DNA from: a virus
DNA length: 43,999 bases
Direction: 5' to 3' (one strand)
IMG/VR virus record: IMGVR_UViG_3300031637_000002
Span: 1 to 43,999 of that record
This document shows, in pieces, positions 1 through 43,999 of this stretch. The position numbers and the translations under genes were made by a program. Each line of letters starts with the position of its first letter. Position 1 is the stretch's first letter. Below the pieces are notes generated by a model. It searched no databases, was not told where the DNA came from, and saw nothing but the letters and a program-made list of their open reading frames with translations.

Positions 1-11
1 CTGGAATCGTG

Positions 12-17
12 TAGCTT
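12..17 (+). promoter_or_regulatory. -10 box of early promoter cut by the window edge
   Basis: TAGCTT lies 7 bp before the ATG at 25. Its TTGTCA -35 and most of its spacer dyad are visible only in the right-end copy (43734-43762). The spacing predicts a leaderless transcript. Confidence 0.75.
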
Positions 18-24
18 TACTTAC

Positions 25-252
25 ATGAAGAACAGCACCGCAACCCTCGCCCTTGAATCAGCAGCCCTCCGCACGACCGAAGCCGAGTTCGCCCGGTTGA
101 CAGGTGGCCTTCTCGAAGAGTTCGCATGCCGCTCCCTTAAAATCGGAGAACGTGCCGCCCTCGCCGAAGCCCACGAATGGAGCGCCGGAGCTGGCTGGCT
201 TCTCCTCGGCCTCCTCGAAGCGCTTGAGGCTGAGGGGTTTACCGCCCGCTGA
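25..252 (+). CDS. Hypothetical Ala/Leu-rich small early protein
   Basis: This 75-residue protein has unknown function. It is rich in Ala, Leu and Glu and probably helical; the C-terminal half (about residues 47-70) is amphipathic to hydrophobic. The ATG at 25 is chosen because the TAGCTT -10 box ends 7 bp upstream, the arrangement shared by the early promoter family, so the mRNA should start at or beside the ATG. The gene is repeated at 43770-43997 because of the end redundancy, with Cys in this copy and Arg in the other near residue 35. A strong hairpin follows at once. No family recognised. Confidence 0.7.
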   Translation: MKNSTATLALESAALRTTEAEFARLTGGLLEEFACRSLKIGERAALAEAHEWSAGAGWLLLGLLEALEAEGFTAR

Positions 253-258
253 TCCTGA

Positions 259-922: not shown

Positions 923-951
923 TTGTCATCCCGATCCAGGTCGTGTAGCTT
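923..951 (+). promoter_or_regulatory. Early leaderless promoter with spacer dyad
   Basis: TTGTCA (923-928), 17-bp spacer holding CGATCCAGGTCG (932-943), then TAGCTT (946-951). ATG follows 7 bp later at 959. Upstream lies the GATTCTTTTGGTTGGGGG block shared by class A members of the family. Confidence 0.85.
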
Positions 952-1840: not shown

Positions 1841-1866
1841 ATTTCCGAGAAAGTCTGGCGAAGGGG

Positions 1867-1894
1867 TTGCATCCCGACGGGAGTCGTGTACTAT
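1867..1894 (+). promoter_or_regulatory. Early leaderless promoter, variant -35
   Basis: TTGCAT (1867-1872) looks like TTGTCAT with one base deleted, giving a 16-bp spacer. It holds CGACGGGAGTCG and then TACTAT (1889-1894), 7 bp before the ATG at 1902. A GAGAAAGTCTGG block lies upstream, as in class B members. Confidence 0.75.
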
Positions 1895-2402: not shown

Positions 2403-2438
2403 CGTTCATCGACCCGACTACAATCGGGTCGATGAACG
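2403..2438 (+). promoter_or_regulatory. 15-bp palindrome over -10 box and start codon
   Basis: CGTTCATCGACCCGA (2403-2417) and TCGGGTCGATGAACG (2424-2438) form a perfect inverted repeat with a 6-nt loop. The TACAAT -10 box (2419-2424) falls in the loop region and the ATG (2432-2434) in the right arm. It could be an operator, an RNA hairpin hiding the start codon, or a terminator for the upstream operon. Confidence 0.7.
2419..2424 (+). promoter_or_regulatory. Late-type -10 box, leaderless
   Basis: TACAAT lies 7 bp before the ATG at 2432. No convincing -35 is visible at 17 bp upstream. It may start the late transcript carrying the packaging and head genes. Confidence 0.55.
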
Positions 2439-4986: not shown

Positions 4987-4992
4987 TACCAT
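4987..4992 (+). promoter_or_regulatory. Late-type -10 box, leaderless
   Basis: TACCAT ends 7 bp before the ATG at 5000. There is no Shine-Dalgarno and no clear -35. Confidence 0.5.
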
Positions 4993-4999
4993 CGACGAC

Positions 5000-5293
5000 A
5001 TGACATTGCTTGTTGTTCTGTCCGTTCTGGCCTGCTGGCGTCTGGCCCGCCTGCTTACCGTCGATGAAGTGTTCCTCCCTGTCCGTGAACGAGTCGCAAA
5101 GCGCGGCGACACTTGGGCATATTTTGTCACGTGCCCGTGGTGCCTGAGCATCTGGGTTTCTCCGCTCGTCGCTGTCCCTGTCGTGCTTTGGTCCGACTTC
5201 AACGACCCGTGGCTCTGGATCGTCGTGATCTCGCTGACCGGTTCGCTGGCTGCCGGGATCGGTCAGACGGTCGAGGACAGGCTCGATCGGTAA
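5000..5293 (+). CDS. Membrane protein, DUF1360-like
   Basis: This 97-residue protein has three hydrophobic segments (about residues 1-14, 47-63 and 70-90). A CPWCLSIWVSP motif in the middle and the N-terminal ACWRLARLLTVDEVF resemble DUF1360 proteins, which are small membrane proteins of unknown function common in bacteria and their phages. It lies between TerL and portal, an unusual place for a membrane gene. The stop codon overlaps the next ATG (TAATG). The leaderless-type box sets the start. Confidence 0.7.
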   Translation: MTLLVVLSVLACWRLARLLTVDEVFLPVRERVAKRGDTWAYFVTCPWCLSIWVSPLVAVPVVLWSDFNDPWLWIVVISLTGSLAAGIGQTVEDRLDR

Positions 5294-5427
5294 TGATTTG
5301 TGAGGCGTCGCTGCTCGAAGGAGACGTAGATGGGCCGTTGCTGATATGCCCTGAGTGCGGACGTTCCTGGTATCAGCTCGGCACAGATTGCTTGCTGCCG
5401 GATCACACTCGACAGGACGAACTGTGA
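5293..5427 (+). CDS. Small CxxC protein
   Basis: This protein has 44 residues with an ICPECGRSWYQ motif in the middle and a further Cys before LLPDH, so a single zinc site formed by two Cys plus Cys/His is possible. The ATG overlaps the preceding stop codon. It is acidic overall. No family recognised; it may be translated by coupling with the membrane protein. Confidence 0.6.
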   Translation: MICEASLLEGDVDGPLLICPECGRSWYQLGTDCLLPDHTRQDEL

Positions 5428-5468: not shown

Positions 5469-5474
5469 TAGCCT
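5469..5474 (+). promoter_or_regulatory. Late-type -10 box, leaderless
   Basis: TAGCCT ends 6 bp before the portal ATG at 5481. Neither a Shine-Dalgarno nor a -35 is visible. Confidence 0.55.
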
Positions 5475-9290: not shown

Positions 9291-9509
9291 TCAGGCGGGG
9301 TGAGCGTCGAGGTACTCTTCGCCTTTGAGGGTGAGTTCAAAGAGGCCGAAGTTGTTGGCGAAGATGAAGCCCTTCTCGATGGCGGCGTTGGAGCGTTCCC
9401 CGACCCCGTCTTCGTCGCCGCTGGCGATGGTGCCTTCGTACCAGCAGTCGATTTGGCTGACGCGGATCATGGAGCGGAGGATGCTGGCTGCGGTGCGGTT
9501 GTTGTTCAT
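9291..9509 (-). CDS. Hypothetical early-type protein
   Basis: This protein has 72 residues. The sequence MNNNRTAASILRSMIRVSQI followed by SNAAIEKGFI and FGLFELTLKGEEYLDAHP suggests a small winged-helix-like fold (helices then a hairpin and LTLKGEEYL, as in many repeat transcription regulators), but this is weak. The start at 9509 is chosen because TAGCTT lies 7 bp upstream in the early leaderless arrangement; a longer reading begins inside the promoter. It converges on the structural gene that ends at 9290. Confidence 0.65.
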   Translation of the reverse strand: MNNNRTAASILRSMIRVSQIDCWYEGTIASGDEDGVGERSNAAIEKGFIFANNFGLFELTLKGEEYLDAHPA

Positions 9510-9516
9510 GAGTGCA

Positions 9517-9545
9517 AAGCTATCGACTCCAATCGTGAACGACAA
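9517..9545 (-). promoter_or_regulatory. Early leaderless promoter, minus strand
   Basis: On the minus strand TTGTCG, spacer with CGATTGGAGTCG, then TAGCTT, 7 bp before the ATG at 9509. It is a class B member (dyad one base from the -10) with a GAAGAAAGTTTGG block upstream. Confidence 0.8.
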
Positions 9546-9574
9546 CCCATCTCCCAAACTTTCTTCGGAAAGAT

Positions 9575-9823
9575 TTAGAGGAGGACCGTCAGCCCGTTGC
9601 AAACGTCGAAGGCGGCGTCGGTCTCTTCGACCATGTCGAGCACGGCGTCAGCCTGCGGGCAGGCCATGCCGTGCGCCATGATCTCGGAGGCTGCGCGGTT
9701 CCGCGAGGCGGTCCAGAAGCGGCCGTCGCGAAAGAGGCCGAAGAGGACGAGGTCGTGGCCGTAGTTAGCCGGGGAGCCAGGGACGGTGCGCTCAAGTCTC
9801 ACTGAGAGCGTGGAGGTGGTCAT
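9575..9823 (-). CDS. Hypothetical early-type protein
   Basis: This 82-residue protein begins MTTSTLSVRLERTVPG, has a beta-like stretch DLVLFGLFRDGRFWTAS and a helical C-terminus with ADAVLDMVEETDAAFD. ATG 9823 is preferred over an in-frame ATG 48 bases upstream because AACCAGAAACGAGAAACC, the start-associated sequence of second genes in early operons, lies directly before it. It is the second gene of the minus operon beginning at 10064. No family recognised. Confidence 0.65.
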   Translation of the reverse strand: MTTSTLSVRLERTVPGSPANYGHDLVLFGLFRDGRFWTASRNRAASEIMAHGMACPQADAVLDMVEETDAAFDVCNGLTVLL

Positions 9824-9845
9824 TGGTTTCTCGTTTCTGGTTGGG

Positions 9846-10064
9846 TCAGCGATCGCCGTCAGCGGCGACAACTTCGATGAGGGTGGCGGCTCGGGCCTGA
9901 CGCTCGATGGTCTGGCCGAGGCTGTTGACGGCTTCGATGGTGACGAGGTCGTCGCCCCAGACTGCGGTGATCGTGTGGGCCTTGTTGCCGTAGACGCTGC
10001 GGACGACGAGCTTGTCTCCGAGGATCAGAGTCGCTGCGGCGAGGCTGGTGGTTGGTTCGTTCAT
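9846..10064 (-). CDS. Small beta-rich early-type protein
   Basis: This 72-residue protein is probably a small beta barrel: ATLILGDKLVVRSVYGNKAH, ITAVWGDDLVTIEAVN. Such a pattern resembles small SH3-like or KOW-like modules, but no family is certain. The ATG at 10064 lies 7 bp after TATATT on the minus strand. It heads a two-gene operon with 9575-9823 and is transcribed away from the plus-strand gene at 10173. Confidence 0.65.
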   Translation of the reverse strand: MNEPTTSLAAATLILGDKLVVRSVYGNKAHTITAVWGDDLVTIEAVNSLGQTIERQARAATLIEVVAADGDR

Positions 10065-10071
10065 GGAGATC

Positions 10072-10100
10072 AATATACGGACTCCAGTCGTGAATGACAA
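10072..10100 (-). promoter_or_regulatory. Early leaderless promoter, minus strand
   Basis: TTGTCA, 17-bp spacer with CGACTGGAGTCC, TATATT, 7 bp to the ATG at 10064, all on the minus strand. It is divergent from the promoter at 10137-10165; the stretch between them is AT-rich. Confidence 0.8.
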
Positions 10101-10136
10101 CCTCAAACAAATATTTATTTATTTACGATTGAGGGG

Positions 10137-10165
10137 TTGTCAAGTCGATCACGGTCGTGTACTGT
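10137..10165 (+). promoter_or_regulatory. Early leaderless promoter with spacer dyad
   Basis: TTGTCA (10137-10142), spacer with CGATCACGGTCG, TACTGT (10160-10165), 7 bp to the ATG at 10173. It has a GAGGGG sequence before the -35 but lacks the full upstream T-rich block. Confidence 0.85.
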
Positions 10166-10172
10166 TACATCC

Positions 10173-10367
10173 ATGAACGAGACAGCAATCATCGAAATCA
10201 AGAAGTCGGGCCGCAAGTTCGTCGCCATCCGTAACGGCGTCACTAAGGCTGGCCGATTCGACTCGGTGGCTGACGCTCGGGCTTGCGAGCGTCGCAGCGA
10301 TCGGTACGCAACGCACATCTACCCAGTCCAGGGCGGCATCTGCACCGAGTACGGCATCAACGGCTGA
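10173..10367 (+). CDS. Hypothetical early-type protein
   Basis: This protein has 64 residues and is basic. It shows a strand-like start (AIIEIKKSGRKFVAIRNG) and a helix SVADARACERRSDRYATHIY. The ATG at 10173 is set by the leaderless-type promoter; the upstream in-frame reading (MSSRSRSC) is promoter sequence. It heads an operon with 10408 and 10731. No family recognised. Confidence 0.65.
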   Translation: MNETAIIEIKKSGRKFVAIRNGVTKAGRFDSVADARACERRSDRYATHIYPVQGGICTEYGING

Positions 10368-10407
10368 CCGGCCGACCAACCAACCACCAACCAGAAACGA
10401 GAATCCA

Positions 10408-10734
10408 ATGACCGCAACAAAGTTCACCGCAACCACCGGGACCGGCACCTCGACCGAGACGTTCACCCGCACCTCGACGCTCGACCTCACGCACGCAGTG
10501 ATCGGCATCGTCGGCTCCCGCATCGCCGAGATCGCCGACCGCACCGCCTGGCTCGACCGCTGGGAAGGCACGGGCGTCGAAGGCATCCTCGTCCGCAACA
10601 ACAAGCGAGACCTCGTCCGGTTGGCCGAGTCCGATTCGGTCACGGTCCACCGTGTGATCTCCTGGCACGCCTCGGAAGACGCAGCGACACGCAAGCGCCG
10701 CGTCGGCGAGACGGTCGTGGCGGTCAAGTCGTGA
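10408..10734 (+). CDS. Hypothetical early-type protein
   Basis: This 108-residue protein has a Thr-rich N-terminus (about residues 1-25), then a helical part (VIGIVGSRIAEIADRTAWLDRW) and a basic C-terminus. CCAACCAGAAACGAGAATCC immediately precedes the ATG, the recurring start signal of second genes in early operons. Its TGA overlaps the GTG of the next gene. No family recognised. Confidence 0.65.
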   Translation: MTATKFTATTGTGTSTETFTRTSTLDLTHAVIGIVGSRIAEIADRTAWLDRWEGTGVEGILVRNNKRDLVRLAESDSVTVHRVISWHASEDAATRKRRVGETVVAVKS

Positions 10735-11015
10735 GCACGGAGACGATCACGAAGCTCCCGGCGAGCCAGGGCCATTCATTCGGTCCTGGCTCGCTGGAGC
10801 GAATGGTGCTGACCGCGTGGACGAACAAGCACGGCGTCGGCAAAGTGCGGCTCACGGGCTGGTTCACGGCGTACTGCGGGCACGGCAACGAGCACAACGT
10901 TCGGATCGATGAGCGTGGCGCTGCTGCTGACTTCGACGGCTGGAAGACCTGGCAGGTTGCGTTTGAGCTGATCTCGTTCGGCCTGGAGGATTGGGCCGAC
11001 GAATGCGATATCTGA
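10731..11015 (+). CDS. Hypothetical early-type protein
   Basis: This 94-residue protein has a GTG start overlapping the previous stop codon (GTGA). The C-terminal half is aromatic and acidic (GWKTWQVAFELISFGLEDWADE), and a HSFGPGSLERMVLTAW segment lies near residues 15-30. Third gene of the operon starting at 10173; the next early promoter follows after 19 bases. No family recognised. Confidence 0.6.
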   Translation: MSTETITKLPASQGHSFGPGSLERMVLTAWTNKHGVGKVRLTGWFTAYCGHGNEHNVRIDERGAAADFDGWKTWQVAFELISFGLEDWADECDI

Positions 11016-11034
11016 ATCTTTTCTTTGTTGGGGG

Positions 11035-11063
11035 TTGTCAAGTCGAGTCGAGTCGTGTAGTGT
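11035..11063 (+). promoter_or_regulatory. Early leaderless promoter with spacer dyad
   Basis: TTGTCA (11035-11040), spacer with CGAGTCGAGTCG, TAGTGT (11058-11063), 7 bp to the ATG at 11071. The class A block TTCTTTGTTGGGGG precedes the -35. Confidence 0.85.
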
Positions 11064-11070
11064 TACATCC

Positions 11071-11796
11071 ATGAACAGCAACCAGACAGCCCGCCTCGAA
11101 GTCACCATCGACACCGAGATCGCCCGCCTCGCAGGGATCTCCGCAACCGCCTCCGAGCGTGTCGCCAGCATGAAGCGATACAAGAAGGACGGCGACCGTG
11201 ACCTCCTCGAAGCGATCGACGCCGCAGCCTCCACCCGTGAAGCGTTCCTCGCCGAGAACAAGAAGTTCGCCGGATGGTCACGCTTCTTCCTGGTCAACAA
11301 CAAGGGCGGCCACATCCACTCCTCGACCAACTGCTCGACCTGCACCTTCCACACCAGCTTCTCCTGGCTCACGAACCTCGCAGCGATGACGAGCGCCGAA
11401 GCCGTCGAAGAGTTCGGTGCGATCCTCTGCTCGGTCTGCTTCCCCGAAGCACCGGTCGAGTGGACGAACGGCAAGAACAAGAAGGTCGAAGCCGACAAGC
11501 AGCTTGCCGCCGACCTCAAAGCGATGCGGGCGACGCCCGAGGGCAAGAAGCTCCTGAAGGCTGATCGCGACCTGCGCTCCACGGCCAGCTCCGCCAAGTG
11601 GGCCTGCGAGGCGGTCGCCCAGCTCGAAGGCTTCGCCGCTGACGGGCAGGAGCGGACGCCGGAGCGGGTCGCGTCGTTGCGGTCGGACATCGTGGCGGCG
11701 CTTGCCAAGCAGATCAAGACCGAGGCTCTGCTGGTAGGAGCGCAGTCGAAGCTCGACCTGGCTTCTCTCGCTTTCGATGTGGCGGCGGCTGGCTGA
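11071..11796 (+). CDS. Cys/His-containing conserved actinophage-type protein
   Basis: This protein has 241 residues. A probable metal-binding core lies at about residues 68-130: FFLVNNKGGHIHSSTNCSTC, then the ILCSVCFPEAPVEW segment, giving paired Cys and His residues. I recall this HIHSS...CSTC...LCSVCFP pattern from many actinobacteriophage proteins of unknown function. The N-terminus (1-60) and the C-terminal 100 residues look helical and coiled-coil-like. Single-gene operon set between a leaderless-type promoter and a 15-bp hairpin. A nucleic-acid-binding role is possible but not shown. Confidence 0.75.
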   Translation: MNSNQTARLEVTIDTEIARLAGISATASERVASMKRYKKDGDRDLLEAIDAAASTREAFLAENKKFAGWSRFFLVNNKGGHIHSSTNCSTCTFHTSFSWLTNLAAMTSAEAVEEFGAILCSVCFPEAPVEWTNGKNKKVEADKQLAADLKAMRATPEGKKLLKADRDLRSTASSAKWACEAVAQLEGFAADGQERTPERVASLRSDIVAALAKQIKTEALLVGAQSKLDLASLAFDVAAAG

Positions 11797-11799
11797 GAT

Positions 11800-11838
11800 C
11801 CTCGTCCGAAGATTCTTTTGAGAAATCTTCGGACGAGG
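11800..11838 (+). terminator. 15-bp perfect hairpin abutting the next -35
   Basis: CCTCGTCCGAAGATT (11800-11814) and AATCTTCGGACGAGG (11824-11838) pair perfectly over a 9-nt loop. It begins 4 bases after a stop codon and its last base touches the TTGTCA at 11839, so it probably ends the upstream transcript. Confidence 0.75.
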
Positions 11839-11867
11839 TTGTCAACCTCGACATCAGTCGATATCTT
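11839..11867 (+). promoter_or_regulatory. Early leaderless promoter, class B
   Basis: TTGTCA (11839-11844), spacer with CGACATCAGTCG one base from TATCTT (11862-11867), 7 bp to the ATG at 11875. Confidence 0.8.
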
Positions 11868-11874
11868 AATCTCC

Positions 11875-12123
11875 ATGAACAACACCTCCATCCCCACTCC
11901 TTCCTTCGACACCGTTGTCGCCAACGTGAAGGCCGCTCTCCGGTCAGCGAAAGGCCAGGGCATCTTCGGTACGCCTTCCGCCGCTCTCGATGCGGCCGTT
12001 CGTCCGTACTCGGGTGCGTTCTTCTCCTACGAGGAGACAAAGGCTCTCGCCGACATGGCGCTGGCGAAGGCCCGTCGCGAGATCGAGGTCGAGGCTGCTC
12101 ACGCAGCGATCTTCGCAGCCTGA
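11875..12123 (+). CDS. Hypothetical early-type protein
   Basis: This protein has 82 residues and is largely helical and Ala-rich (VVANVKAALRSAKGQG, then KALADMALAKARREIEVEAA). The ATG is fixed by the class B promoter 7 bp upstream. It stands alone between two hairpins. No family recognised. Confidence 0.6.
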   Translation: MNNTSIPTPSFDTVVANVKAALRSAKGQGIFGTPSAALDAAVRPYSGAFFSYEETKALADMALAKARREIEVEAAHAAIFAA

Positions 12124-12130
12124 TCGGCGG

Positions 12131-12148
12131 GCTGGCCGTCGGGCCAGC
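12131..12148 (+). terminator. GC-rich 7-bp hairpin
   Basis: GCTGGCC (12131-12137) and GGCCAGC (12142-12148) pair over a 4-nt loop, 7 bases after a stop codon. There is no U-tract, as is common for GC-rich actinobacterial terminators. Confidence 0.55.
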
Positions 12149-12201
12149 GAGGCCGCTTGTCTCGCTTCCTGAAAGAAATCCAAGAAAGTTTGGAGTCGAG
12201 G

Positions 12202-12230
12202 TTGTCACTCACGACGGGAGTCGATATGGT
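12202..12230 (+). promoter_or_regulatory. Early leaderless promoter, class B
   Basis: TTGTCA (12202-12207), spacer with CGACGGGAGTCG one base from TATGGT (12225-12230), 7 bp to the ATG at 12238. A GAAAGTTTGG block lies upstream. Confidence 0.8.
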
Positions 12231-12237
12231 ACTTCTC

Positions 12238-12585
12238 ATGACCAACACAACCACCACCGCCCGCCCCACGATCTCCTTCCCGACCATCTCGCTCAAAGAG
12301 GAAGCCCGCACGATCACCCGCATCGCATTCGACACCCTCCTCCAAGTTTCAAGCTGGAACGGCGTCGCCGAGATGAACCGGGCCAGCGCCGACTCCGACC
12401 GTGACGCCATCATCTGCGGCTCATGGAGCGACGGCGAGATCAAGCTCGTCAACCTGTCCGCTGGCGACTCGATCACCTTCACCGCCCCGGCTGACGATGC
12501 GATGGGCCTCGACTTCGTCCTCACGATGGACGGCGTCGAGTTCCCCGGCCACACCGATCACATCATCCGCATCGGACTCGCCTGA
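12238..12585 (+). CDS. Hypothetical early-type protein
   Basis: This 115-residue protein has a Thr-rich start, a helix around residues 18-35, and a beta-rich C-terminal half (AIICGSWSDGEIKLVNLS, DSITFTAP, DFVLTMDGVEFPG). The ATG at 12238 follows the class B promoter by 7 bp; the longer in-frame reading from 12157 runs through the promoter. It is the last gene of the early-type island within the head module. No family recognised. Confidence 0.65.
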   Translation: MTNTTTTARPTISFPTISLKEEARTITRIAFDTLLQVSSWNGVAEMNRASADSDRDAIICGSWSDGEIKLVNLSAGDSITFTAPADDAMGLDFVLTMDGVEFPGHTDHIIRIGLA

Positions 12586-12631: not shown

Positions 12632-12637
12632 TACGCT
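12632..12637 (+). promoter_or_regulatory. Late-type -10 box, leaderless
   Basis: TACGCT ends 7 bp before the protease ATG at 12645; there is no Shine-Dalgarno. It would restart late transcription after the early-type island. Confidence 0.5.
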
Positions 12638-14400: not shown

Positions 14401-14434
14401 GCTGTGACGAATAATCATATTCCAACATCACAGC
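14401..14434 (+). promoter_or_regulatory. Hairpin just before the capsid ribosome site
   Basis: GCTGTGA (14401-14407) and TCACAGC (14428-14434) pair over a 20-nt AT-rich loop, ending three bases before the GGAGG of the capsid gene. It may stabilise the mRNA or space the ribosome site. Confidence 0.45.
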
Positions 14435-14450
14435 CCCTGGAGGCAACGTC

Positions 14451-16332: not shown

Positions 16333-17157
16333 ATGGCAACACTGGTCGAATATTCGGCATTACTGAATCTCACAGACGCACCGACGAGCGTGCCATACCG
16401 GTACGGCTTGTTCTCTGCGGTGAACTTTGACCAGATCGGTGAACACGACCGGCTCGGTATGACTTGGCGGTCTGACGCCTGCCAGCAGCCCGGTATCACG
16501 ATAGGCGAATGCAAAGCGATTCCGCCTGCGGTGGTTGCTCCGCTGGCTGCCTCCGCTTGTGGATACATCGGCACCGCCGAAGCGTTCACGGCGTACATCC
16601 TCGATGAAGATTCGCTGGCTGGCGTTCCGCTCTCGCAGCACGAAACTCAAGCACGCAATCGTTTCATCGCTGCCGAGCAATGGGGCGTCGAGAACAAAAT
16701 CTCGGCCGTCCTGGCGACCGCTGGAGCTGCTGCTGCTTCGATCATCGACATCGCTCCGCTCGTACATGCTGGCAAGAGCATCCCCGACAAATATCAGACG
16801 ATGCTCGCGCAGGTCGAATCTCAAATGTCGGTCCTGACCGGCAATGAGGGCATCATCTACATGTCCCGGTTTGCGGCGTCGATGCTGTCCACCGTCCTGA
16901 CCACATCGGGCGGAATGCTTCGCACGGTCCTCGGGACTCCTGTGGCTGCGATGGGCGGCTGGGCCGACGTGACTGCGAACACGCTCATCACCGAGGATGT
17001 CATTTACGGCACCGGTCCTGTCAAAGCAGCACGCGGCGACATCGACCTCTACAACGGAATCGGCGATCTGTCGATCAACGACGCCTCGATCATCGTGCAG
17101 CGGACCTACTCATTCGGGTGGGACTGCGGCGTCGTCGGCGCTTCGGTAACTCTCTAA
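16333..17157 (+). CDS. Conserved virion protein downstream of the capsid gene
   Basis: This 274-residue protein has a clear AAGGAG ribosome site. Visible features are WRSDACQQPG, then an Ala-rich ACGYIGTAEAFTAYILDED, EQWGVENKISAVLA, a region like IIYMSRFAASMLST, and a C-terminal NDASIIVQRTYSFGWDCGVVGASV. I recall similar proteins encoded directly after capsid genes in actinophages and suspect a structural role (capsid-related or head-tail), but the exact role is unknown. An alternative start just upstream is less likely because the ribosome site fits ATG 16333. Confidence 0.7.
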   Translation: MATLVEYSALLNLTDAPTSVPYRYGLFSAVNFDQIGEHDRLGMTWRSDACQQPGITIGECKAIPPAVVAPLAASACGYIGTAEAFTAYILDEDSLAGVPLSQHETQARNRFIAAEQWGVENKISAVLATAGAAAASIIDIAPLVHAGKSIPDKYQTMLAQVESQMSVLTGNEGIIYMSRFAASMLSTVLTTSGGMLRTVLGTPVAAMGGWADVTANTLITEDVIYGTGPVKAARGDIDLYNGIGDLSINDASIIVQRTYSFGWDCGVVGASVTL

Positions 17158-17987: not shown

Positions 17988-17993
17988 TAGGCT
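17988..17993 (+). promoter_or_regulatory. Late-type -10 box, leaderless
   Basis: TAGGCT ends 6 bp before the ATG at 18000; there is no Shine-Dalgarno. Confidence 0.55.
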
Positions 17994-19690: not shown

Positions 19691-19696
19691 TAGAGT
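19691..19696 (+). promoter_or_regulatory. Late-type -10 box
   Basis: TAGAGT ends 8 bp before the ATG at 19705, slightly farther than the others; there is no Shine-Dalgarno. Confidence 0.4.
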
Positions 19697-20336: not shown

Positions 20337-20342
20337 TAGCCT
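20337..20342 (+). promoter_or_regulatory. Late-type -10 box, leaderless
   Basis: TAGCCT ends 6 bp before the tape-measure ATG at 20349; there is no Shine-Dalgarno. Confidence 0.55.
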
Positions 20343-23340: not shown

Positions 23341-24225
23341 ATGAGTCTCGTATATCTGACAGAGGACACGCTCGGCCAGCTCGATCTCGGGCCGATCAGC
23401 TTGGGCGGCGGGCTACGCGAATGCAACGCCGCCGGTTACGTCGTCACGGGCTGGGAGATCGGTTTCCCTGCCTCGCGACCGGTGACCCGCAACCGTGCGC
23501 TCAGCGACGGCACGATCGACTCGACACGGTTCATCGGTGCCCGAGCTGTCAGCATGGCGATCACGCTCGACGTGAATAAGCAAGACCCGCAAATCTCGAT
23601 CGACAATTTGACGGCTTACATGAGTCCTCGGCTCCGCCCTCGGCTGAACTGGACCATCCCTGGTTCGACGCAGGAGCGTTCGCTGCTGGTCCGTGGCGAA
23701 TCGGCTCCCGTGACAATCCGGCGGCCGCAGGCGAACACGCTCACGGCTTCGTTCATCGGTGTTCGCGGCGTGTTGGAGTCACCAAACGAATCGACGCTTC
23801 TGATCGTGCCTGGCAGCGATGTTGAGACAGGTCGCAACTACGACCTGACGTTCGACCGGGTGTATCCGGCAGGTATTCCGATTGGCTCCAGAATCGTTGT
23901 CAACGACGGCAACGAAACGACCGACTGGTCAGCGACCATCTTCGGGCCTGCTGTCGATCCGACCGTGACGATCAACGGGGTCAATATGTCGTTCGACCGT
24001 AACGGCGGCCAGACGTTGGCGGCTGGCGAAACTTTGACGATCAACACCCGCACCAAAACGGTGTATCTGAACGACGATCCGACAGCGTCCCGGTACGACA
24101 AAATCAACTTCACTGACTGGTCGTGGGAAGAGGTCCGCTTCGTGCCTGGGCAAAACATCGTCCGCTATCAAGAAGCCACGCAGCAAGGAACCTGTCAGTT
24201 CACGTGGCGGTCGGCGTGGCTATAG
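23341..24225 (+). CDS. Distal tail protein
   Basis: This 294-residue protein begins 19 bases after the tape measure with an AGGAAA ribosome site. The N-terminal half (VTGWEIGFPASRPVTRNRAL, STRFIGARAVSMAITLDV) fits distal tail (Dit-type) proteins that close the tube and join it to the baseplate; the C-terminal half is beta-rich. This is the usual gene after the tape measure in siphoviruses. It overlaps the following gene by 10 bases. Confidence 0.75.
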   Translation: MSLVYLTEDTLGQLDLGPISLGGGLRECNAAGYVVTGWEIGFPASRPVTRNRALSDGTIDSTRFIGARAVSMAITLDVNKQDPQISIDNLTAYMSPRLRPRLNWTIPGSTQERSLLVRGESAPVTIRRPQANTLTASFIGVRGVLESPNESTLLIVPGSDVETGRNYDLTFDRVYPAGIPIGSRIVVNDGNETTDWSATIFGPAVDPTVTINGVNMSFDRNGGQTLAAGETLTINTRTKTVYLNDDPTASRYDKINFTDWSWEEVRFVPGQNIVRYQEATQQGTCQFTWRSAWL

Positions 24226-25290: not shown

Positions 25291-25296
25291 TAGGCT
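25291..25296 (+). promoter_or_regulatory. Late-type -10 box, leaderless
   Basis: TAGGCT ends 6 bp before the ATG at 25303; there is no Shine-Dalgarno. Confidence 0.55.
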
Positions 25297-25302
25297 GAAC
25301 TC

Positions 25303-26208
25303 ATGACCGTCCCAAGAGGTACACCGCCTGGCGTCGAACAGTCTGCTGCTTTGCAAGAGGATCAGCTTCGCCGCATCGCTGCCCTGGAACGTGCCTCAAC
25401 GTCTGGGAGCGGCGGCGGGGGCGGCGGAAGTGGCGGCTACGTCGGCCAAATCACAGCGTGGGCTGGCGGTGGCACTGGGGCGACGCTCCCTACTAACAAT
25501 CTGGTTTGCGATGGGGTTGCTGTCTCTCGCTCTACCTACTCGGCGCTGTTCGCTGTCATCGGAACGAAGTACGGGACGGGCAACGGAAGCACGACGTTCA
25601 ATCTGCCGACCGGCACGACCGGCGAGTTTCTCACTGGCATCCCGGCAGCTCAAAACACTAGAGCGGTCGTTGCGAATACGAGCAACGAATCTGCTAGCCA
25701 CACGCACACGGGAACCAGCGGTAACCAGTCGGCTAATCACGCTCACAACTCGAACGCCGGGAATCAGTCTGCTAACCACTCGCACAACGCTGGCAACCAA
25801 TCGGCCAATCACTCGCACGCCGTCAACATGGGCAACCCGAGTTCCAATCACTCGCACTCGTTCTCTGCGAACACTGGCAACGTCAGCGCCAACCATCAGC
25901 ACTCGTATTACTCGGGTGGCAGTGGAGCCAAGAACACAGGCAATATCACCGCCAACCACTACCACGGTGTCAACGGCAATACGGGCAACGTCAGTGCCTG
26001 GCACACGCACGCAACCAACGTCGGCAACAACAGCGCCAACCACAGCCACTCGATCAACAACCAAACGGCAAGCCACAGCCACACGATCACCGTCGCCAAC
26101 AGCACGACGAACCACACTCACACGCTGACGACGGGCAACGAATCTGTCGTCCACGACCATTCAGTCGGGAGCCTCAATGTCACTTTCCTCATCCAGTACG
26201 CCGCCTGA
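25303..26208 (+). CDS. Tail fibre/collar protein with twelve HxH motifs
   Basis: This 301-residue protein has three parts. Residues 1-45 include a helical start and a Gly/Ser linker. Residues about 46-115 match a phage collar domain (VGQITAWAGG, STTFNLPTGTTGEF). Residues 133-286 carry twelve His-x-His motifs in short repeats (ANHSHN, ANHSHA, TNHTHT and similar) separated by 8-16 residues. In T4 gp37, HxH pairs from three chains hold iron in a needle-like fibre tip, so a trimeric metal-binding fibre is likely here. The C-terminus FLIQYAA is typical of fibre tips. It overlaps the next gene. Confidence 0.8.
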   Translation: MTVPRGTPPGVEQSAALQEDQLRRIAALERASTSGSGGGGGGSGGYVGQITAWAGGGTGATLPTNNLVCDGVAVSRSTYSALFAVIGTKYGTGNGSTTFNLPTGTTGEFLTGIPAAQNTRAVVANTSNESASHTHTGTSGNQSANHAHNSNAGNQSANHSHNAGNQSANHSHAVNMGNPSSNHSHSFSANTGNVSANHQHSYYSGGSGAKNTGNITANHYHGVNGNTGNVSAWHTHATNVGNNSANHSHSINNQTASHSHTITVANSTTNHTHTLTTGNESVVHDHSVGSLNVTFLIQYAA

Positions 26209-27866: not shown

Positions 27867-27872
27867 TACCCT
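27867..27872 (+). promoter_or_regulatory. Late-type -10 box, leaderless
   Basis: TACCCT ends 6 bp before the ATG at 27879; there is no Shine-Dalgarno. Confidence 0.55.
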
Positions 27873-30030: not shown

Positions 30031-30036
30031 TAGCCT
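30031..30036 (+). promoter_or_regulatory. Late-type -10 box, leaderless
   Basis: TAGCCT ends 6 bp before the ATG at 30043; there is no Shine-Dalgarno. Confidence 0.55.
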
Positions 30037-32918: not shown

Positions 32919-32924
32919 TACCCT
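32919..32924 (+). promoter_or_regulatory. Late-type -10 box, leaderless
   Basis: TACCCT ends 6 bp before the ATG at 32931; there is no Shine-Dalgarno. Confidence 0.55.
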
Positions 32925-36968: not shown

Positions 36969-37476
36969 GGTCCTGCACTCCTTCTTCGAGCTTTACGGTG
37001 TTGCGCCACTGGCGTGATTTGTAGTCGTCGATGTTGAGGTTGAGTTCGCTTTTTGCGTTGCCCTTTGTTCCGCTGATCGAGGGGACGTACATGCTGAGGA
37101 CTCGGATCGTTTCCTTTGCGATGTTGCGGCGCTCTTGGTTGATCTCTCCGGTGCCGATGTCGATGGCGACTTTGGTGGCGACGGCGTGGGCGAGGTCTTC
37201 TCGGAAGCGTGGCCCGTCAGACTTGTCTCGGAATGTTGCGGATGCGAGCGATCGGCTGCGGACAAATCGTCCAACGTTGGGGATCGTGACGGCGTCGCTC
37301 TCCATTCGTTCGTTCAGCGATTCTTCGCAAACGTCGCGGATCTGTTTTGCGACGAGGCTGAGGTGGAGGGCTGCTTGATAGCGGGCACCTACTTCGTCCA
37401 GCGTGCCGTTGTCGGCGCTGTCTGCCTGTTCGCTGAGCGCTTCGAGCGCTGCGTATAGGGCGGTGTCTAGTTCCAT
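36961..37476 (-). CDS. Hypothetical recombination-operon protein
   Basis: This 171-residue protein is first in the minus operon, before ERF. It has a helical start (LYAALEALSEQADSA, YQAALHLSLVAKQIRDVCEE), a middle segment with IPNVGRFVRSRS, and a basic C-terminal end (DDYKSRQWRNTVKLEE). ATG 37476 is chosen over an upstream in-frame reading because a GGAG ribosome site precedes it; the upstream part overlaps the promoter. By place it may act with ERF or in DNA metabolism; no motif proves it. Confidence 0.65.
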   Translation of the reverse strand: MELDTALYAALEALSEQADSADNGTLDEVGARYQAALHLSLVAKQIRDVCEESLNERMESDAVTIPNVGRFVRSRSLASATFRDKSDGPRFREDLAHAVATKVAIDIGTGEINQERRNIAKETIRVLSMYVPSISGTKGNAKSELNLNIDDYKSRQWRNTVKLEEGVQDHE

Positions 37477-37534
37477 GTTTTGTGCTCCAGTGGTTTTCGT
37501 CGTGCCGGATGGCGTGACGTGTTGTGTAGGAGAA

Positions 37535-37563
37535 ACAGTACACGACCTGAGTCGTGATTGCAA
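37535..37563 (-). promoter_or_regulatory. Early promoter for the ERF-SSB operon, leadered
   Basis: On the minus strand TTGCAA, spacer with CGACTCAGGTCG, then TACTGT (complement of 37535-37540). Unlike the other members, the first start codon (37476) lies about 50 bases downstream of the expected start site and has a normal GGAG ribosome site. Confidence 0.8.
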
Positions 37564-37566
37564 CCT

Positions 37567-37622
37567 GGTCCACTTTTAATGTCGTGGTCCACTTTTAATG
37601 TCGTGGTCCACTTTTAATGTCG
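37567..37622. repeat. Three 19-bp direct repeats, iteron-like
   Basis: GGTCCACTTTTAATGTCGT is present at 37567-37585 and 37586-37604 and again without its last base at 37605-37622, in exact tandem between divergent promoters. Equal 19-bp spacing and an AT-rich core suit an origin or a cooperative operator. The GGTCCAC part recurs three times in the initiator gene (39087-39141). Confidence 0.85.
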
Positions 37623-37647
37623 CACCGATAATTCTTTTGGTTGGGGG

Positions 37648-37676
37648 TTGTCAAGTCGATTGAGGTCGTGTATGGT
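37648..37676 (+). promoter_or_regulatory. Early leaderless promoter with spacer dyad
   Basis: TTGTCA (37648-37653), spacer with CGATTGAGGTCG, TATGGT (37671-37676), 7 bp to ATG 37684. The class A block ATTCTTTTGGTTGGGGG lies upstream. Divergent from the ERF operon promoter across the iterons. Confidence 0.85.
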
Positions 37677-38380: not shown

Positions 38381-38409
38381 TTGTCAAGCCGACTCGAATC
38401 GTGTATGGT
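38381..38409 (+). promoter_or_regulatory. Early leaderless promoter with spacer dyad
   Basis: TTGTCA (38381-38386), spacer with CGACTCGAATCG, TATGGT (38404-38409), 7 bp to ATG 38417. Upstream GATTCTTTTGGTTACGGG marks class A. It probably drives the replication genes. Confidence 0.85.
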
Positions 38410-41405: not shown

Positions 41406-41791
41406 GCGACATCCGACCCGTTCTGAACCAAGCCGAGATCGAGCACATGATCGTGGATACGACCGAGTCGCTGGAGCTGCTGGTCGAGGAGTACGCAGCG
41501 ATCTCGGAGCGGGCTGCTACCGCCGAAGTCGATTTTAAACGGATTCAGGCGTTGACGGTGATTCGCCAGATCGAGAATCCTCCGCTCGACAAGTTCGACA
41601 AGCCGCGCAAAATGTTGGCATCGGAACGCGACGCTCGCGTCGAGATCGAATGCAACGACGCTCGGCGTCTGGCTGCGATCGCGGCTTCGGCTCGCGAGGT
41701 TTCCCGAGAGTCGATGTCCACTCACCGGACTCGTATTGATGCTGCGCGAACGCTCGCTGCGAACGTGCGATATCACGTCAGCGACAGATGA
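41402..41791 (+). CDS. Coiled-coil phage protein
   Basis: This 129-residue protein is helical throughout with a long charged coiled coil (VDTTESLELLVEEYAAISER, then EVDFKRIQALTVIRQI, and DARRLAAIAASAREVSRE). Overlaps the previous gene (ATGA). Similar small coiled-coil proteins are common near phage recombination genes, but no function is established. Confidence 0.6.
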   Translation: MSDIRPVLNQAEIEHMIVDTTESLELLVEEYAAISERAATAEVDFKRIQALTVIRQIENPPLDKFDKPRKMLASERDARVEIECNDARRLAAIAASAREVSRESMSTHRTRIDAARTLAANVRYHVSDR

Positions 41792-41793
41792 TG

Positions 41794-41822
41794 GTGGCGC
41801 TGCGACCCGAGTCGGCTACCGT
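41794..41822 (+). promoter_or_regulatory. Degenerate early promoter with intact dyad
   Basis: CGACCCGAGTCG (41803-41814) two bases before TACCGT (41817-41822), 7 bp to ATG 41830. The -35 position reads GTGGCG, so the -35 is weak while dyad and -10 keep family spacing. Confidence 0.6.
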
Positions 41823-41829
41823 GTATGTC

Positions 41830-42069
41830 ATGCTCGACGCTGACAAGAAGAAACTCGCCAAGCTCCAGACTGCTGTCGCTCGCGGCAACATCGCGATGTT
41901 GGAACGGAACGCCATGTTTAGGCGGCTGTTCAGCGACGGCATAACGCACTCTGCGATGACGTTGGTCGTCAACGAAGTGAACGCCGCAGAAGGCGACAGG
42001 GAGGTCACTGCGGACGCCGTGTACCGGGCGATCAAGCGGCTGAATGATAAGAACGAAATCAATCACTGA
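41830..42069 (+). CDS. Hypothetical helical early protein
   Basis: This 79-residue protein starts at ATG 41830, chosen because TACCGT lies 7 bp upstream; a longer reading begins at 41788 within the promoter. It is helical with basic start (MLDADKKKLAKLQTAVARGN) and a C-terminal AVYRAIKRLNDKNEIN, perhaps a small helix-turn-helix. It ends before the next early promoter. Confidence 0.6.
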   Translation: MLDADKKKLAKLQTAVARGNIAMLERNAMFRRLFSDGITHSAMTLVVNEVNAAEGDREVTADAVYRAIKRLNDKNEINH

Positions 42070-42086: not shown

Positions 42087-42115
42087 TTGTCAAACCGATC
42101 ACGGTCGTGTATGGT
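42087..42115 (+). promoter_or_regulatory. Early leaderless promoter with spacer dyad
   Basis: TTGTCA (42087-42092), spacer with CGATCACGGTCG (identical to the dyad at 10173's promoter), TATGGT (42110-42115), 7 bp to ATG 42123. Upstream TTTTAGTTGGGGG is class A. Confidence 0.85.
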
Positions 42116-43733: not shown

Positions 43734-43762
43734 TTGTCATCCCGACTGGAATCGTGTAGCTT
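43734..43762 (+). promoter_or_regulatory. Early leaderless promoter at the genome junction
   Basis: TTGTCA (43734-43739), spacer with CGACTGGAATCG (43743-43754), TAGCTT (43757-43762), 7 bp to ATG 43770. The class A block GATTCTTTGGATTGGGGG lies upstream. Confidence 0.85.
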
Positions 43763-43999
43763 TACTTACATGAAGAACAGCACCGCAACCCTCGCCCTTG
43801 AATCAGCAGCCCTCCGCACGACCGAAGCCGAGTTCGCCCGGTTGACAGGTGGCCTTCTCGAAGAGTTCGCACGCCGCTCCCTTAAAATCGGAGAACGTGC
43901 CGCCCTCGCCGAAGCCCACGAATGGAGCGCCGGAGCTGGCTGGCTTCTCCTCGGCCTCCTCGAAGCGCTTGAGGCTGAGGGGTTTACCGCCCGCTGATC
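43746..43999. repeat. Right copy of 254-bp end repeat
   Basis: Identical to 1-254 except C at 43872 for T at 127. It shows end redundancy or closure of a circular map. Confidence 0.95.
43770..43997 (+). CDS. Right-end copy of the first early protein
   Basis: This is the same 75-residue frame as 25-252, with Arg instead of Cys near residue 35. On a circular map the two are one gene. It carries the complete promoter that the left end lacks. Function unknown. Confidence 0.7.
   Translation: MKNSTATLALESAALRTTEAEFARLTGGLLEEFARRSLKIGERAALAEAHEWSAGAGWLLLGLLEALEAEGFTAR

What the first reader, a model, noticed from the sequence alone, without database searches (positions are those of the whole stretch)
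5469..5474. Late-type leaderless starts: TAGCCT/TAGGCT/TACCCT 6-8 bp before structural ATGs
Structural genes that follow an intergenic gap and lack a Shine-Dalgarno (ATGs at 5000, 5481, 12645, 18000, 19705, 20349, 25303, 27879, 30043, 32931, and 2432, 3435) have TANNNT ending 6-8 bp before the ATG, mostly TA(G/C)(G/C)CT, without a -35. Genes with a Shine-Dalgarno (14451, 16333, 17186) do not. This suggests many internal late promoters and leaderless translation, possibly with an altered sigma specificity.
Basis: partly seen in the sequence, partly recalled or inferred. Interest (0 to 1): 0.75.

Follow-up and report, generated by a model that had tools for sequence, protein, structure and literature searches.

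The report
Leaderless promoters inside phage structural operon
An uncultured actinobacterial virus, and well-studied laboratory viruses of Mycobacterium, carry a tiny promoter just before the start codons of the same particle-building genes, so that those genes are probably read from leaderless messages; this gives specific, easily tested candidates for the poorly known late promoters of these viruses.

Summary
All 12 listed starts have TANNNT ending 6-8 nt before the ATG, against 14 of 545 other ATGs (p = 6e-18). Two more such starts were missed (GTG 9102, ATG 41830). In the structural region, nearly every start that follows a gap has either this box or a Shine-Dalgarno; genes with neither overlap or abut the previous gene. 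Another 12 starts, mostly non-structural, are also leaderless-type but have a -35 (TTGTCA-N17-TANNNT-N7-ATG).

The best reading is a host primary-sigma (SigA-type) -10-only promoter giving leaderless mRNAs, a signal well known in Actinobacteria. What appears new is where it sits. The ORF before portal, the portal, the head-tail adaptor and the tape-measure gene carry it in the uncultured relatives, and also in cultured cluster-B mycobacteriophages, Gordonia phage NHagos and Rhodococcus phage ReqiPine5. Capsid and major tail genes keep a Shine-Dalgarno in all of them. Other cultured actinophages with the same gene order lack it at portal and tape measure.

An altered sigma specificity is not shown. 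However, structural boxes prefer C at -10 position 5 (9/14 against 0/12 in the -35 class). Promoter activity and late timing are untested. Cluster-B phages on M. smegmatis make both easy to test.

The parts
2419..2424 (+). -10-only box TACAAT, N7 before ATG 2432 (weak VRR-NUC-like gene); box in the five relatives of 50-58% identity shown, and in the 100% copy; not at the start picked in L004
3423..3428 (+). -10-only box TAGGAT, N6 before ATG 3435 (small ORF overlapping terL start)
4987..4992 (+). -10-only box TACCAT, N7 before ATG 5000 (ORF before portal); same site in uncultured relatives and in most cluster-B phages, NHagos, ReqiPine5
5469..5474 (+). -10-only box TAGCCT, N6 before ATG 5481 (portal); TA[GCA]CCT or TACCGT in relatives
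12632..12637 (+). -10-only box TACGCT, N7 before ATG 12645 (capsid maturation protease/structural)
17988..17993 (+). -10-only box TAGGCT, N6 before ATG 18000 (head-tail adaptor by synteny)
19691..19696 (+). -10-only box TAGAGT, N8 before ATG 19705; box also N8 in three uncultured relatives and N6 in a fourth
20337..20342 (+). -10-only box TAGCCT, N6 before ATG 20349 (tape measure); TAGCCT-N6 in all seven cluster-B phages and NHagos
25291..25296 (+). -10-only box TAGGCT, N6 before ATG 25303
   Evidence: not conserved in L071/L073, which have SD
27867..27872 (+). -10-only box TACCCT, N6 before ATG 27879 (tail fibre-like)
30031..30036 (+). -10-only box TAGCCT, N6 before ATG 30043
32919..32924 (+). 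-10-only box TACCCT, N6 before ATG 32931
41817..41822 (+). -10-only box TACCGT, N7 before ATG 41830 (missed; right-arm gene, in-frame start inside ORF 41788-42069)
923..951 (+). class A promoter TTGTCA-N17-TAGCTT, N7 before ATG 959
1866..1894 (+). class A-like site with a poor -35, TACTAT -10, N7 before ATG 1902
10137..10165 (+). class A promoter TTGTCA-N17-TACTGT, N7 before ATG 10173
11035..11063 (+). class A promoter TTGTCA-N17-TAGTGT, N7 before ATG 11071
11839..11867 (+). class A promoter TTGTCA-N17-TATCTT, N7 before ATG 11875
12202..12230 (+). class A promoter TTGTCA-N17-TATGGT, N7 before ATG 12238
37648..37676 (+). class A promoter TTGTCA-N17-TATGGT, N7 before ATG 37684
38381..38409 (+). 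class A promoter TTGTCA-N17-TATGGT, N7 before ATG 38417
42087..42115 (+). class A promoter TTGTCA-N17-TATGGT, N7 before ATG 42123
43734..43762 (+). class A promoter TTGTCA-N17-TAGCTT, N7 before ATG 43770 (= ATG 25 across the terminal repeat)
10072..10100 (-). class A promoter TTGTCA-N17-TATATT, N7 before ATG 10064 (minus strand)
9517..9545 (-). class A promoter TTGTCG-N17-TAGCTT, N7 before ATG 9509 (minus strand)
14434..14450 (+). Shine-Dalgarno start of major capsid gene 14451 (contrast class); SD also at 16333 and 17186, conserved in relatives

Best explanation
The TANNNT boxes are -10 elements, without a -35, used by the primary-sigma RNA polymerase of an actinobacterial host. Transcription starts at or next to the A (or G) of the start codon 6-8 nt downstream and gives leaderless mRNAs. 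The structural region is therefore probably not one message driven only from upstream. It is split into short units, each opened by its own leaderless promoter (pre-portal ORF, portal, protease, adaptor, tape measure, several tail genes). Later genes of a unit follow by stop/start overlap or by Shine-Dalgarno, and the capsid and major tail genes use Shine-Dalgarno. The arrangement is under selection: the same genes carry the box in two separate phage lineages. Shown: box, spacing, gene partition, conservation. Inferred: promoter activity, leaderless 5' ends, sigma identity, late timing.
For: 12/12 reader starts against 14/545 other ATGs. Enrichment only at spacers 6-8. An annotation-independent test gives 9.0-fold in the window, 5.9-fold in close uncultured relatives, 7.5-fold in 40-50% relatives, 5.6- and 4.8-fold in two cluster-B mycobacteriophages, and about 1 in EMoore, Ranunculus, TurkishDelight and sphingomonad prophage loci. 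The same genes carry the box across relatives and the same three (MCP, next gene, MTP) carry SD. Window and L004 portals share TAGCCT while the 6-nt spacers differ. Aligned sites have G at -2 before the hexamer, matching the CGN/SRN-TANNNT extension reported for M. tuberculosis, where TANNNT without a -35 marks 73% of primary TSSs and about a quarter of genes with a primary TSS are leaderless (PMC3898074). TA-like signals about 12 bp before starts mark leaderless genes in Actinobacteria (PMC3160421). Portal, protease, major tail and SSB match actinophages. Portal tree: label changes 3 against 13 shuffled.
Against: No transcript data. The host is unidentified, so its own leaderless usage could not be measured; terL hits were sphingomonad prophages. 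M. smegmatis phage L5, not a close relative, appears to start late transcription at one place near the left end (PMC5712189). Gene 25303 has SD, not the box, in two relatives. Gene starts were curated by eye and by a simple coding score, which tends to favour starts with visible signals; the annotation-independent test answers this in part.
Confidence: 0.84

Rival explanations
1. A phage factor (RNA polymerase-binding protein, sigma appropriator or activator) changes specificity late in infection so that TANCCT-type -10s without a -35 are used, while TTGTCA-N17-TANNNT sites serve early genes.
For: Structural boxes have C at position 5 in 9/14 and never T at position 3, against 0/12 and 6/12 in the -35 class (p = 7e-4 and 4e-3); C at position 5 is 19% among all TANNNT in the window. 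Across 52 non-redundant sites C is commonest at positions 4 and 5, followed by G.
Against: The middle bases vary between genes and relatives (TACCAT, TAGAGT, TACAAT, TACTGT), so no invariant late box exists. The sites are related by descent and chosen for TANNNT. No candidate factor was found. High G+C and weak selection on NNN could explain much of it.
Confidence: 0.2
2. One long late transcript is cut by an RNase just before the start codons, and the box is part of the cleavage signal.
For: L5 late transcripts appear to begin near the left end (PMC5712189). Leaderless ends can in principle arise by processing.
Against: The first T, A and last T with 6-8 nt spacing are those of a -10. The same spacing follows an obvious -35 in class A of the same genome. 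The G before the hexamer matches the mycobacterial -10 extension (PMC3898074).
Confidence: 0.06
3. The box is a translation signal on a leadered message rather than a promoter.
For: It sits at a fixed distance from start codons of genes that lack SD.
Against: UAGCCU has no useful pairing with the anti-SD tail (own knowledge); class A has the same box in clear -35/-10 promoters; spacing and degeneracy are those of a -10.
Confidence: 0.05
4. Chance in a composition-biased genome, with starts chosen to fit.
Against: Shuffles, Fisher test, annotation-independent test and conservation.
Confidence: 0.01

Closest known systems
Leaderless genes with a TANNNT -10 in Actinobacteria (M. tuberculosis, PMC3898074; genome-wide survey, PMC3160421; mycobacterial leaderless translation, PMC4633059)
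   Same: TANNNT without -35, short spacer to the start codon, G-containing extension before the hexamer, no SD.
   Different: Those are host genes. In M. tuberculosis leaderless genes are depleted of active-growth functions; here essential virion genes carry the signal and it recurs through one operon.
Mycobacteriophage Corndog (cluster O) predicted leaderless promoters (PMC4351075) and Adephagia P90 (PMC11373665)
   Same: Phage promoters predicted to start transcription at the first base of a start codon.
   Different: Single predicted promoters (SigA-like in Corndog, in AT-rich intergenic regions); not a series of -10-only boxes through the virion genes conserved between lineages.
Mycobacteriophage L5/D29 late transcription (cluster A, PMC5712189)
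   Same: Rightward left-arm virion genes expressed late.
   Different: Late transcripts appear to begin about 230 bp from the left end; I saw no internal leaderless series reported there.
SAS/ESAS of cluster K mycobacteriophages (mentioned for Adephagia, PMC11373665)
   Same: Repeated signals next to start codons.
   Different: From my own knowledge, SAS carries an SD-like core and ESAS sits in leadered promoters; the boxes here replace the SD.
-10 regions adjacent to ORFs in Deinococcus-Thermus (PMC12340547)
   Same: -10 next to the ORF drives leaderless expression.
   Different: Different phylum, host genes; used only as a parallel.

Membership tests
Actinobacterial -10-only leaderless promoter | TANNNT 6-8 nt before the start codon, more often than chance | tested here: met
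Actinobacterial -10-only leaderless promoter | no conserved -35 | tested here: met
   best -35 match per site like background; class A is the positive control
Actinobacterial -10-only leaderless promoter | no Shine-Dalgarno at the same start | tested here: met
   11 of 13 structural-region box starts without an SD-like motif; the two exceptions (3435, 30043) hold an AGGA/GAGG that overlaps the box or lies beside it
Actinobacterial -10-only leaderless promoter | 5' triphosphate end at the start codon | not testable with these tools
   needs dRNA-seq
Actinobacterial -10-only leaderless promoter | host is an actinobacterium | tested here: inconclusive
   structural and SSB proteins match actinophages; terL matched sphingomonad prophages in genome contigs; no host genome found
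Phage-specific late promoter class (altered specificity) | a sequence distinct from the phage's other promoters | tested here: inconclusive
   position 5 C 9/14 against 0/12, but the middle is degenerate across relatives
Phage-specific late promoter class (altered specificity) | activity only in infected cells | not testable with these tools
   needs reporter assays
Cluster-B-type (Bclasvirinae) late gene organisation | box at pre-portal, portal, adaptor and tape measure; SD at MCP, next gene and MTP | tested here: met
   same pattern in window, cluster B, NHagos and ReqiPine5
Cluster-B-type (Bclasvirinae) late gene organisation | common ancestry of window and cluster B portals to the exclusion of SD-type phages | tested here: inconclusive
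   two separately supported groups, relation between them unresolved; one origin not excluded, not shown

The most novel reading that the evidence does not exclude
Two phage lineages, one uncultured and one including the cluster-B mycobacteriophages, express essential virion genes from a series of leaderless -10-only late promoters with a preferred TANCCT form, and a phage-made factor or modified host polymerase confers that preference late in infection.
Probability: 0.18. Interest if true: 0.78.

Novelty: new variant of a known kind. Interest (0 to 1): 0.6.

Why it matters
A 2022 review states that few mycobacteriophage late promoters have been characterised and that more work on them is warranted (PMC9262239). 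This gives exact, conserved, single-base predictions in phages that grow on M. smegmatis, where cluster B alone has more than 350 members by that review. If right, virion genes of these phages are set gene by gene through promoter and start-codon class (leaderless for portal, adaptor and tape measure; Shine-Dalgarno for the high-copy capsid and tail proteins), which would link stoichiometry to initiation mode. It also corrects start codons in public records and helps recognise genes in uncultured actinophages.

Tried and rejected
Host genome: a portal-alignment scan of genome contigs found no relative and a terL scan found sphingomonad prophages; the genome holding the best terL hit has no WhiB, so no actinobacterial host was available for comparison. 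The idea that the pattern is unique to the uncultured clade, suggested by the first four cultured phages, was wrong: cluster B has it. TAG in TAGCCT/TAGGCT as the stop codon of the previous gene: rejected, upstream genes end elsewhere. An invariant late box: rejected, the middle bases vary. A -35 for the structural boxes: none above background. DSL-LC01's apparent portal box is doubtful (alternative start, very long branch, whole-region ratio 1.1). The major-capsid scan of viral contigs gave one fragment only. No structure predictions were run: the question concerns DNA signals.

Full report
WHAT THE WINDOW IS. The window is one virus record, with a 254-bp terminal overlap (253 of 254 identical, bases 1-254 and 43746-43999), so it is probably a complete terminally redundant or circular genome of about 43.7 kb. 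Order: terminase, portal, MuF, protease, major capsid, major tail, adaptor, tape measure, tail genes, endolysin, and then ERF, SSB and a replication initiator. Portal, protease and major tail match about 850 cultured phage records, nearly all of actinobacteria, at about 40% identity or less. Close relatives are uncultured IMG/VR contigs. The host is not known.

IS THE BOX THERE? Yes. All 12 starts named have TANNNT ending 6-8 nt before the ATG, against 14 of 545 other ATGs (p = 5.8e-18). The spacing profile peaks at 6-7 nt; shuffled sequence gives a quarter to a seventh of the count. Eight of the 12 are TA[G/C][G/C]CT.

THREE START CLASSES. Class A: 12 starts, nearly all with TTGTCA (one TTGTCG, one poor), N17, TANNNT, N7, ATG; a repeated cassette, also on the minus strand at 10064 and 9509. 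Class B: 14 starts with the -10 only, spacer 6 (9), 7 (4) or 8 (1), -35 matches at background level. Class C: Shine-Dalgarno or overlap with the previous gene. In the structural region every start after a gap of more than 2 nt has a box or an SD-like motif, except 34482; for two small ORFs in that table (near 5329 and 14146), and for the overlapping gene near 24215, my start coordinates are imprecise. Genes with neither signal abut or overlap their neighbour. Both A and B therefore predict leaderless mRNAs; the finding covers only B.

CONSERVATION IN UNCULTURED RELATIVES. Upstream regions of orthologues with 40-80% protein identity mostly keep the class gene by gene. Portal, ORF 5000, protease 12645, 18000, 19705 and 30043 keep a box in the closer relatives, as do most relatives of 2432 and the single aligned relatives found for 32931 and the tape measure; capsid, 16333 and major tail keep an SD. 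Exceptions are in the most distant rows, where the aligned start is often unsure, and in gene 25303, which has SD in two relatives. The hexamer survives while spacer and flanks change: for portal the window and L004 share TAGCCT but not the spacer.

CONSERVATION IN CULTURED PHAGES. An annotation-independent count (ATG or GTG opening at least 60 codons, TANNNT at 6-7 nt against 11-40 nt) gave ratios of 9.0 in the window, 5.9 in the close uncultured clade, 7.5 in the 40-50% group and 1.4 in the more distant group. Among cultured phages: 5.6 Waleliano, 4.8 Phipps, 3.9 Pam4, 3.5 Twister6, 3.1 Metamorphoo, 2.6 ReqiPine5, 0.9-1.7 the others; counts per phage are small. In Waleliano, Heath, Nigel, Phipps, CRB2, Briakila, Gordonia NHagos and Rhodococcus ReqiPine5 the same four genes carry the box (ORF before portal, portal, adaptor, tape measure); ItsyBitsy1 has three of four; capsid, the gene after it and major tail carry SD in every one. 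Nigel's adaptor and ReqiPine5's portal fit if the start is moved to 16542 and 6380. TurkishDelight, EMoore, Twister6, Sunfish, Ranunculus, phiAsp2 and Metamorphoo have no box at portal, adaptor or tape measure (EMoore and Ranunculus do have one at the ORF before portal); Pam4 has one at the adaptor. On a portal tree the label needs 3 changes against 13 in shuffles, in two well-supported groups whose mutual relation is open. This corrects my own interim view, after four cultured phages only, that the trait was confined to the uncultured clade.

MECHANISM. Aligned on the hexamer, 52 non-redundant sites show information at G two bases before it, at the hexamer, at C in positions 4-5 and at G just after; nothing at -35 (the sites were chosen for TANNNT, so the T, A and T are given). 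That is the M. tuberculosis promoter description: TANNNT, no -35, CGN/SRN extension (PMC3898074). I therefore take the boxes as SigA-type -10 elements giving leaderless messages. Class B hexamers differ from class A (C at position 5: 9/14 against 0/12; T at position 3: 0/14 against 6/12). This could reflect weaker, G+C-rich hexamers, or a late change in polymerase specificity; the data do not decide. Timing is inferred from gene function.

KNOWN OR NEW. Leaderless -10-only promoters are well known in actinobacterial hosts (PMC3898074, PMC3160421, PMC4633059), and single leaderless phage promoters have been predicted (PMC4351075; PMC11373665). I found no report of a conserved series of them through a phage virion operon; the library searched lacks most subscription papers and the search was by words. 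A review notes that few mycobacteriophage late promoters are characterised (PMC9262239). I rate it a new variant of a known kind.

LIMITS. No transcript data, no host genome, gene starts partly curated by eye, and the cultured sample (18 phages) was picked by portal and protease similarity.

Noticed in passing
window 9291-12585: An island of small genes on both strands, most of them opened by class A (-35) leaderless promoters, sits inside the structural region between MuF and the protease.
   Followed up: partly
window 1-254 and 43746-43999: Terminal direct overlap of 254 bp, 253 identical: the record is probably a complete genome.
   Followed up: yes
window 25674-26049: Eight degenerate copies of a 34-nt repeat inside gene 25303, encoding an N/H-rich repeated stretch.
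   Followed up: no
window 37560-37625: Three near-identical tandem copies of about 19 nt (ggtccacttttaatgtcgt) between divergent promoters.
   Followed up: no
window 37476-37573, minus strand: A TTGCAA-N17-TACTGT promoter followed by a leader of about 50 nt with an SD-like CTGGAG before ATG 37476: a leadered exception.
   Followed up: no
L014 / L077-L082 (IMGVR_UViG_3300027848_000009, 155,887 bp): G+C falls from 0.62 to 0.51 along the contig and the later part encodes tail and fibre-like proteins of another kind: perhaps a chimera of two phages.
   Followed up: partly
L220 (Nigel) 16503 and L215 (ReqiPine5) 6413: Annotated starts of adaptor and portal look wrong; 16542 and 6380 have the conserved box.
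   Followed up: partly
L218 (Pam4, ON014756): Recorded as a Pseudanabaena phage, yet its portal, capsid and tail module is actinophage-like and its adaptor has TAGGCT-N6-GTG; the host entry may deserve a check.
   Followed up: no
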